From: a bacterium
Lineage (GTDB): Bacteria > Gemmatimonadota > Glassbacteria > GWA2-58-10
Direction: 5' to 3'
DNA: 49,574 nucleotides
NCBI GenBank assembly: GCA_021372515.1
Contig: JAJFUG010000134.1
Span: forward strand, 1-49,574
Under the pieces are notes generated by a model, which was not told the origin of the DNA, did no database searches, and saw only the letters and a program-made list of their open reading frames with translations. Positions 25,394 through 34,685 of this stretch are shown here, in pieces (within the stretch, counting starts at the first letter, position 1; each line of letters starts with the position of its first letter). The position numbers and the translations under genes are program-made.

Positions 25394-25457
25394 GCTTTGA
25401 TGAAGGGGCACGGCATACCGAGCCAGATTTATAAGATTGAATCCCCTCGCTCCCAGC

Positions 25458-25842
25458 AATGTCCGGTTAGGGAGTTGCAGTGAGAAGACGAAAGACTCTG
25501 TTCTGCTTTAGTTTCGGCCAAAGCAGCAAAGCCAGCGGGGGCCGGTACAGGCCGCTTGCCTCGTCCAAACCGCGACATTGTTTCTGACTATGGTGTTCAC
25601 GAAGTATCGATTTCGCTGCCGCGATGCAGCGGCGGAGCTGCCGCGAATCGCCGCCGGGCTGTGCGGCAATTACATCCCTGGCCGTTTCAGGCTCGATTGC
25701 ACGCTGCCCTGGCGGGAGGCTCAGACAGGTGCGGCCCCCAAAGGCAACAACCGCGGCGGCCTGACAGCCGCAGGCGGGTTTACTCTTCTGGGATGCCGGG
25801 CGGTGTCGTAGGGGCGAACCTTGTGTTCGCCCGTGAAACTTT
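25458..25842 (+). repeat. dispersed non-coding repeat, copy A
   Basis: Fills most of the 494-bp gap between rpe and the NUDIX gene. It matches copy B (34315-34685) in four blocks: 25504-25544 (41 nt, 1 difference), 25614-25659 (46 nt, 1), 25680-25742 (63 nt, 2) and 25810-25834 (25 nt, 0), plus a weaker match from AATGTCCGGT at 25458. Spacers differ: 69 vs 58 nt after block 1 and 67 vs 65 nt before block 4, so no reading frame is kept. Block 1 folds as hairpin 25503-25511/25518-25526, block 2 as 25613-25619/25626-25632, block 4 as 25812-25819/25825-25832. It has the same orientation as its neighbours. The rest of the gap (25394-25457, 25843-25887) holds only the NUDIX ribosome site. Confidence 0.9.
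25812..25832 (+). other. terminal hairpin of repeat copy A
   Basis: GGGCGAAC and GTTCGCCC form a perfect 8-bp stem around CTTGT; the identical 25-nt block closes copy B. Similar short hairpins (GGGGCGAACCTTGTGTTCGCCC and relatives) are, from memory, scattered between genes in various environmental bacteria, so this part may be an older, wider repeat attached to the larger unit. No T-run follows. Confidence 0.75.
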
Positions 25843-34140: not shown

Positions 34141-34314
34141 TTCCTGTCTTTCCGGATATTTGATTCAGCGTGCGTTCGGGGCAGGCCTCGAACGGAAAGT
34201 CGCCTGGGCACCGTGCAGCGTGACCCTACGAAAGACTACTTGTATCCGCGCCATCCGTGATGCAAATGTAGCGGAGCGTCAAGGGGCAGAGGCTGCAACC
34301 CCCTGGTTTCCGTT

Positions 34315-34685
34315 AATGTCCGGTCAAGAGCTTGCAGTGATAAACCCTAAGACTCTATTTTGCTTTGGTTTCGGCCAAAGCAGCAAAGCCAGCGGGGGCC
34401 GCAAACTCGTCCCAGCTACACCTCTGCTTCAGCCGATTGTGTGCCCGGTACTTCGATTCCGCTGCCGCGATGCAGCGGCGGCGCTGCCGCGAATCGCCGC
34501 CGGGCAGTACTGCATTTTCAGCCCCGGCCGTTTCAGGCTCGATTACACGCTGCCCTGGCGGGAGGCTCAAACAGGTGCGGCCCCCAAAAGCTGAACAGCG
34601 GCGGCCTGACAGCCGCATGCGATTATTTGCTACGAGACCCCACACGGTATCGCAGGGGCGAACCTTGTGTTCGCCCGTAAACCTT
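34315..34685 (+). repeat. dispersed non-coding repeat, copy B
   Basis: Fills the middle of the 615-bp gap between tyrA and aroA. Blocks matching copy A are 34361-34401, 34460-34505, 34526-34588 and 34654-34678, starting from AATGTCCGGT at 34315. Hairpins: 34360-34368/34375-34383 (block 1), 34459-34465/34472-34478 (block 2) and 34656-34663/34669-34676 (block 4). Relative to copy A, the outer pair of the first hairpin is T-G instead of C-G, and that of the second is C-G instead of T-G. Read in the same sense as copy A, it points opposite to its flanking minus-strand genes. Open frames through it (for example minus 34355-34645) are not kept between copies. Confidence 0.9.
34656..34676 (+). other. 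terminal hairpin of repeat copy B
   Basis: The same perfect 8-bp stem and 5-nt loop as in copy A; the surrounding 25 nt are identical between copies, the only fully invariant block of the repeat. Confidence 0.75.

What the first reader, a model, noticed from the sequence alone, without database searches (positions are those of the whole stretch)
25458..25842. Long dispersed non-coding repeat with four near-invariant blocks (copy A; copy B at 34315-34685)
Two intergenic copies 8.9 kb apart share blocks of 41, 46, 63 and 25 nt with only 1, 1, 2 and 0 differences, separated by spacers of different length (69 vs 58, 67 vs 65 nt). Block-like conservation without a shared frame points to a structured RNA or a non-autonomous mobile unit. 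I do not recognise it as a described family.
Basis: seen in the sequence. Interest (0 to 1): 0.8.

Follow-up and report, generated by a model that had tools for sequence, protein, structure and literature searches.

The report
Structured repeat carried by small transposons
The two copies are members of a repeat with about 66 places in this genome: a small non-coding transposon whose inside is a folded element of about 250 bases, conserved in related genera and absent from RNA catalogues, so a folded element of unknown job seems to spread by riding in unrelated transposons.

Summary
Observation confirmed. Copies A and B belong to an intergenic family with 66 places in this 4.87-Mb genome (reversed control 0), a Glassbacteria-like genome (Gemmatimonadota).

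The finding has two layers. (1) In this genome most copies lie in a MITE: ~400 bp, ends CAGCAATGTCCGGTTAGG/CCTAACCGGACATTRCTG, 8-9 bp target duplications. A resident IS4-family transposase has nearly the same end. (2) Inside is a ~235-nt core with its own history. It recurs in all five held relatives of the family and as at least eight TIR-less solo copies here. Helices P1 and P2 are kept by double compensatory changes (7 of 18 pairs; 97-98% paired against <=62% when slid). Copies with decayed TIRs keep the core nearly intact. In relative G005 the same core sits in a different MITE (391 bp, TAGAGGTTATTTCAAAACC ends).

Rfam 15 has nothing at gathering scores. Core motifs (P1 hairpin, CAAAA linker, AACTCGC..GCTCARACA) recur in a second Gemmatimonadota family and in IMG/VR contigs, suggesting a widespread uncatalogued element. 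Best reading: a non-autonomous transposon carrying a structured, selected core, probably an RNA. The molecular function is unknown; RNA versus DNA hairpin is not settled.

The parts
25454..25471 (+). Copy A, 5' terminal inverted repeat CAGCAATGTCCGGTTAGG (perfect); the 3' TIR of copy A is lost
25503..25526 (+). Copy A, helix P1 hairpin CTGCTTTAG-TTTCGG-CCAAAGCAG (one A/C mismatch)
   Evidence: covariation
25527..25536 (+). Copy A, conserved linker CAAAGCCAGC
25537..25544 (+). Copy A, 5' strand of long-range helix P2 (GGGGGCCG), followed by an insertion not found in most copies
25615..25656 (+). Copy A, conserved block 3 (GCTGCCGCG...GCGAATCGCCGCCG; nested hairpins, GCGAATYGC motif)
25718..25727 (+). 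Copy A, conserved GGCTCAGACA motif (partner of AACTCGC)
25731..25739 (+). Copy A, 3' strand of helix P2 (GCGGCCCCC)
25753..25771 (+). Copy A, 3' hairpin GCGGCGGCCTGACAGCCGC
25811..25832 (+). Copy A, hairpin GGGGCGAACCTTGTGTTCGCCC, also dispersed on its own in relatives
34311..34328 (+). Copy B, decayed 5' TIR (5 of 18 mismatches)
34360..34383 (+). Copy B, helix P1 hairpin TTGCTTTGG-TTTCGG-CCAAAGCAG
34394..34402 (+). Copy B, 5' strand of helix P2 (GGGGGCCGC)
34403..34409 (+). Copy B, AAACTCG motif
34461..34502 (+). Copy B, conserved block 3
34564..34573 (+). Copy B, GGCTCAAACA motif
34577..34585 (+). Copy B, 3' strand of helix P2 (GCGGCCCCC)
34598..34616 (+). Copy B, 3' hairpin GCGGCGGCCTGACAGCCGC
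34655..34676 (+). Copy B, hairpin GGGGCGAACCTTGTGTTCGCCC

Best explanation
Each copy is a non-autonomous transposon (MITE) whose cargo is a structured element of about 235 nt. Mobility layer: a transposase of the IS4 family, encoded elsewhere in the genome, recognises the CAGYAATGTCCGGTTAGG ends and inserts the ~400-bp unit into intergenic DNA with 8-9 bp target duplications (ends and duplications shown; the match with the resident transposase is inferred from its near-identical left end). Cargo layer: the core folds into hairpin P1, a CAAAR linker, the closing helix P2 (GGGGGCCGC/GCGGCCCCC), the paired motifs AACTCGC/GCTCARACA and further hairpins. It is conserved independently of the transposon ends, exists without them, and rides in an unrelated MITE in a sister genus. 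It is therefore most likely a functional structured element, probably a non-coding RNA that binds a conserved partner or gives its carrier an advantage (inferred), which repeatedly becomes transposon cargo. Rough odds: MITE layer 0.95; selected structure 0.85; acting as RNA rather than as a DNA hairpin 0.65.
For: MITE: TIR pairs 384-404 bp apart; target duplications 9/9 at L012 (CCTCGGTCC) and L006 (CGTCCAACC), 8/9 at L005 and L014, 8 bp at L023 and L030. 69 TIR places against 3 in the control. IS4-type transposase C114:36202 with PF01609 + DUF4372, left end CAGTAGTGTCCGGTTAAG; its YKHRWQIELFFKWIK reads as the YREK motif. The IS4Sa subgroup has CA------T ends and 8-10 bp duplications (PMC2266710); TIR position 9 is T. 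Core: 30 distinct P1/P2 rows, 97.8% and 96.6% paired (best slid register 62%), double compensations in 2 of 9 P1 and 5 of 9 P2 pairs, several in single copies. Core in all five held family relatives. Eight solo copies without TIR in the own genome with compensated P1 (CTTCTTTCG/CGAAAGAAG). TIR-decayed copies L004, L008, L018, L022: 12-15 of 36 TIR mismatches but 1-4 of 97 core mismatches. Second vehicle in G005: 391-398 bp, TAGAGGTTATTTCAAAACC TIRs. 26 of 27 testable copies intergenic by a simple ORF rule.
Against: No transcription data. G-U and A-C departures are equally common (7 each), so the helices do not show which strand, or RNA rather than DNA, is selected. Gene conversion between copies could also keep the core uniform while the TIRs decay. 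The resident transposase gene runs to a contig end, so its right end and target duplication cannot be checked. No fixed orientation to neighbouring genes and no consistent neighbouring gene, so no role can be read from context.
Confidence: 0.68

Rival explanations
1. A plain MITE: the interior is a junk remnant of an insertion sequence, uniform only because the family amplified recently and recombines.
For: True MITE anatomy; copies share haplotype-like spacers and two 3' ends, a sign of recombination.
Against: The interior is found in five other genomes of the family with compensatory changes, in another MITE family with unrelated ends and as solo copies without TIRs. The resident IS4 element shows no such interior (L061).
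Confidence: 0.12
2. The core is selected as DNA: a single-stranded DNA hairpin or protein-binding site, like REP/BIME units handled by Y1 transposases or architectural proteins, not as RNA.
For: G-U and A-C mismatches equally frequent; dispersed intergenic copies in both orientations; G003 copies flanked by CCCCGCGGC..GCCGCGAGG hairpins.
Against: About 235 nt of near-constant length with a long-range closing helix and unpaired conserved motifs is more than a REP-type hairpin; no conserved 5' GTAG/GTGG noticed beside the core; Y1 transposases were not searched.
Confidence: 0.2
3. A known RNA-guided mobile-element RNA (HEARO/omega RNA of IscB or TnpB, IS110 bridge RNA, retron or group II intron RNA) now mobilised in trans.
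For: Structured RNA-like cargo with variable stretches in a mobile unit.
Against: No Rfam family reaches gathering score; no shared protein family consistently beside the copies; the core ends well inside the TIRs, so no guide at an element end.
Confidence: 0.06

Closest known systems
Bacterial MITEs derived from IS4-family elements (for example IS4Sa-type ends)
   Same: TIRs beginning CA with T at position 9, 8-9 bp target duplications, no ORF, intergenic, resident transposase with a near-identical left end.
   Different: The interior is a conserved structured module that exists outside the MITE and in an unrelated MITE family.
QMITE1/QMITE2 of Coxiella burnetii and Correia repeats of Neisseria (MITEs giving rise to small RNAs; PMC5896051, PMC10969869)
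   Same: MITE-borne structured sequence in tens of copies; possible source of small RNAs.
   Different: Their fold is mainly the hairpin of the MITE itself; here the fold lies inside the TIRs, is kept by compensatory changes across genera and moves between vehicles.
Dispersed elements with hairpin yTTTCTTTTG..CAAAAGAAAr, CCAAAGA and AACTCGCTNCGCTCARACA in IMG/VR contigs (no name found)
   Same: P1-like hairpin with UUG/CAA apex, CAAAR linker, AACTCGC and GCTCARACA motifs; Gemmatimonadota genome G147 (L244) has the Glassbacteria P1 with TTTCGG loop plus AACTCGCTCCGCTCAAACA.
   Different: In Glassbacteria AACTCGC and GCTCARACA are separated by about 150-170 nt instead of a 3-nt loop.
Plant retrozymes and SINE-type elements (structured RNA in non-autonomous elements; PMC4918200, seen only as a search result)
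   Same: A structured RNA as the conserved part of a non-autonomous mobile unit.
   Different: Those move through RNA; here the ends and target duplications point to DNA transposition.

Membership tests
MITE (non-autonomous DNA transposon) | Terminal inverted repeats at both ends | tested here: met
   13 fetched copies with both TIRs at <=3 of 18 mismatches; copies A and B have lost the 3' TIR
MITE (non-autonomous DNA transposon) | Target site duplications | tested here: met
   8-9 bp in L005, L006, L012, L014, L023, L030
MITE (non-autonomous DNA transposon) | Small, no transposase ORF, multi-copy, intergenic | tested here: met
   384-404 bp; 66 core places; 26 of 27 testable copies outside predicted genes
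IS4-family mobilised element | IS4-type ends and 7-13 bp duplications | tested here: met
   CA......T ends, 8-9 bp
IS4-family mobilised element | Autonomous partner with same ends in the genome | tested here: inconclusive
   Transposase C114:36202 with left end CAGTAGTGTCCGGTTAAG; right end cut at the contig end
Conserved structured RNA | Helices kept by compensatory double changes | tested here: met
   P1 and P2, 7 of 18 pairs with double changes, slid registers 37-62% paired; 8 of 18 pairs in the alignment fold
Conserved structured RNA | Transcribed | not testable with these tools
   no expression data available
Any Rfam 15 family | Score above gathering threshold | tested here: not met
   weak chance-level matches only
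Protein-coding gene | Conserved reading frame | tested here: not met
   core lengths 263-268 nt vary by non-multiples of three
REP/BIME (RAYT-linked) repeats | Short palindrome with adjacent 5' GTAG/GTGG and a Y1 transposase | not tested
   no such tetranucleotide noticed by eye; Y1 transposases were not searched
AACTCGC/GCTCARACA element of IMG/VR contigs | P1 hairpin about 55-75 nt upstream of the motif | tested here: inconclusive
   about 11 of 34 unique motif contexts have such a pyrimidine-rich hairpin at 55-73 nt; the reverse search is weak, 3 of 74; G147 combines both

The most novel reading that the evidence does not exclude
A widespread, uncatalogued class of structured non-coding RNA (P1 hairpin, CAAAR linker, AACUCGC/GCUCARACA internal loop) exists across several bacterial phyla, and in Glassbacteria it spreads by being captured as cargo in MITEs of unrelated transposase families, a bacterial counterpart of SINE-like cargo switching.
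Probability: 0.4. Interest if true: 0.82.

Novelty: new variant of a known kind. Interest (0 to 1): 0.62.

Why it matters
Bacterial MITEs are usually taken as empty shells of insertion sequences. Here one carries a conserved folded module that outlives the shell, occurs without it, and appears in an unrelated shell in a sister genus. That gives a natural test of whether a non-coding module can be selfish cargo or a useful gene spread by transposons. If the link to the AACTCGC/GCTCARACA element of other phyla holds, a common structured element is missing from RNA catalogues.

Tried and rejected
Rfam scans of the window, of relatives and of IMG/VR loci: nothing at gathering score; weak matches (HOTAIRM1, MicX and others) are chance. 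Search for an autonomous or partner gene beside the core: none consistent (neighbours are common enzyme families). Synteny of solo copies with relatives: none convincing. RNAalifold on the raw mixed alignment missed P1 because subtype 2 is misaligned; helix strands were extracted by anchors instead. Literature by sequence strings: nothing on these strings. Plasmid search with the IMG/VR forms: only three Pasteurella plasmids. P1 pattern in IMG/VR: mostly low-complexity chance hits. An autonomous IS with the TAGAGGTTATTTCAAAACC ends was looked for by eye; none identified.

Full report
Observation. They are two of many. A search of the own genome (4.87 Mb, 222 contigs) gave 45 matches at E<=0.001 with only 40 of 165 candidates scored. 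A 24-nt core string with up to 3 mismatches has 66 places, 36 on one strand and 30 on the other, with 0 for the reversed control. Many copies lie at contig ends, so the true number is probably higher and the repeat probably breaks the assembly. A genome-contig scan for the core found it only in MAGs named Candidatus Glassbacteria and Gemmatimonadales, and the genome search places the window's genome in the same family as these.

Mobile layer. Aligning 30 copies in one orientation shows inverted ends CAGCAATGTCCGGTTAGGaactTGCA ... TGCAaaaACCTAACCGGACATTRCTG, 384-404 bp apart. The TIR pattern has 69 places against 3 in the control. Flanks show target duplications: CCTCGGTCC twice at L012, CGTCCAACC twice at L006, 8/9 at L005 and L014, 8 bp at L023 and L030. 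A second MITE with the same ends but another interior lies at C197 with a 9-bp duplication GGGTAGGGG. The one PF01609 transposase of the genome (C114:36202; DDE_Tnp_1 plus DUF4372) is preceded by CAGTAGTGTCCGGTTAAG and ends at TTTTAACCGGAC at the contig end. Published IS4 data give IS4Sa ends CA------T and 8-10 bp duplications, and the YREK motif for the family (PMC2266710); the transposase contains YKHRWQIELFFKWIK, which fits Y(2)R(3)E(6)K (read by eye). Of 27 copies with enough flank, 26 lie between predicted genes, with no fixed orientation (simple ORF and GC3 rule). Copies A and B themselves have lost the 3' TIR, and B's 5' TIR is decayed.

Core layer. Inside the ends is a core of near-constant length, from hairpin P1 to GCGGCCCCC. 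Homologues were found in all five held relatives of the family: G001, G003 and G005 over full length, G002 and G004 as more distant types. A P1-plus-linker pattern gives 3-15 copies in each of these five genomes and 1 in G147, 0 in the other 389 of 395 Gemmatimonadota genomes, and 0 for the reversed control everywhere; the own genome scores 0 there because its P1 reads CTTTGG. Strands of P1 and P2 were taken by position for 57 copies, 30 distinct rows: 97.8% and 96.6% of cells pair, against 37-62% when slid by 1-3. P1 pair 3 occurs as GC, TA and AT, pair 8 as GC, TA and CG; P2 shows double changes at pairs 1, 2, 3, 4 and 6, several in single copies such as L007 (TGGGGCCGC/GCGGCCCCA), L067 (GGTGGCCGC/GCGGCCACC), L117 (GGGAGCCGC/GCGGCTCCC) and L296 (GGGGGACGC/GCGTCCCCC) (shuffles). 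Rows are related, so these are not independent counts, but the single-copy cases are separate events. RNAalifold on a 25-sequence alignment also finds P2 with 8 double-changed pairs of 18.

The core is not tied to the MITE. In the own genome at least eight copies (L286-L289, L291, L292, L296, L298) have the whole core with P1 as CTTCTTTCG/CGAAAGAAG or CTGCTTTCG/CGAAAGCAG and no TIR; the TIR search has no hit at those places. Among MITE copies with decayed ends (L004, L008, L018, L022) the TIRs carry 12-15 mismatches of 36, near random at some ends, while two core blocks carry 1-4 of 97. In G005 a subtype of the core sits in a 391-398 bp unit with 19-bp ends TAGAGGTTATTTCAAAACC and no long duplication, TA at the borders. 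In G003 the core is flanked by CCCCGCGGC..GCCGCGAGG hairpins instead. Recent amplification alone does not explain this; selection on the core does, although gene conversion could contribute.

Wider relatives. From memory of similar repeats I searched IMG/VR for AACTCGCTNCGCTCARACA: 87 stretches. Of 34 distinct contexts about 11 have a pyrimidine-rich hairpin ending in UUG/CAA 55-73 nt upstream, mostly followed by CAAA; others lack it. In Gemmatimonadota the motif is rare: G147 once, G285 once, G346 14 times as the loop of a long hairpin without P1. G147 joins both halves: CCTCCTTTTG-TTTCGG-CAAAAGGAGG CAAAACCATT and AACTCGCTCCGCTCAAACA about 90 nt on. The reverse test, from P1 to motif, is weak because the P1 pattern is of low complexity (3 of 74 contexts against 6 of 20,000 random windows). 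I hold the cross-phylum link as likely but not proven. No Rfam family matches any of these at gathering score, and no paper in the held library prints the longer strings.

Mechanism. Shown: MITE anatomy, multi-copy intergenic spread, compensated helices, core without TIRs, core in two MITE types. Inferred: mobilisation in trans by the IS4 transposase; that the core acts as RNA; that it binds a conserved factor through AACTCGC/GCTCARACA. G-U and A-C departures are equally frequent (7 and 7), so neither strand nor RNA against DNA is settled. Context gives no function.

Verdict. The MITE itself is an ordinary kind; the conserved, separable structured core that changes vehicles is the interesting part.

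Noticed in passing
G000:C197:9965-10433 (L081): Another MITE with the same TIRs (CAGTAATGTCCGGTTAGG) and a 9-bp duplication GGGTAGGGG but a different interior.
   Followed up: partly
window 25416-25437 and flanks of L009, L012, L014, L029: A palindromic repeat close to GGGCACGGCATGCCGTGCCC lies next to many insertions, often with AAATCCCCCTCGGTCC, as if the MITE favours other intergenic palindromes as targets.
   Followed up: no
window 25811-25832 and 34655-34676; G003, G004, G005: The hairpin GGGGCGAACCTTGTGTTCGCCC is dispersed on its own in relatives and is one of two alternative 3' parts of the MITE.
   Followed up: partly
L245, L247-L255 (genome G346): 14 copies of a long hairpin with loop AACTCGCTTCGCTCARACA just downstream of genes, without P1.
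   Followed up: partly
G005: eight units of 391-398 bp, e.g. L300, L304: A MITE with TAGAGGTTATTTCAAAACC ends carrying core subtype 2; its transposase was not found.
   Followed up: partly
L122, L125, L128, L132, L134, L137 (G001, G004): A further subtype with P1 CTTCTTTTG-GTGG-CAAAAGAAG and a second hairpin in place of the P2 5' strand.
   Followed up: no
L172, L186, L198, L205 (IMG/VR): AACTCGCTTCGCTCAAACACTGGCGC without any P1 hairpin, repeated in several contigs; perhaps a different element sharing the motif.
   Followed up: no
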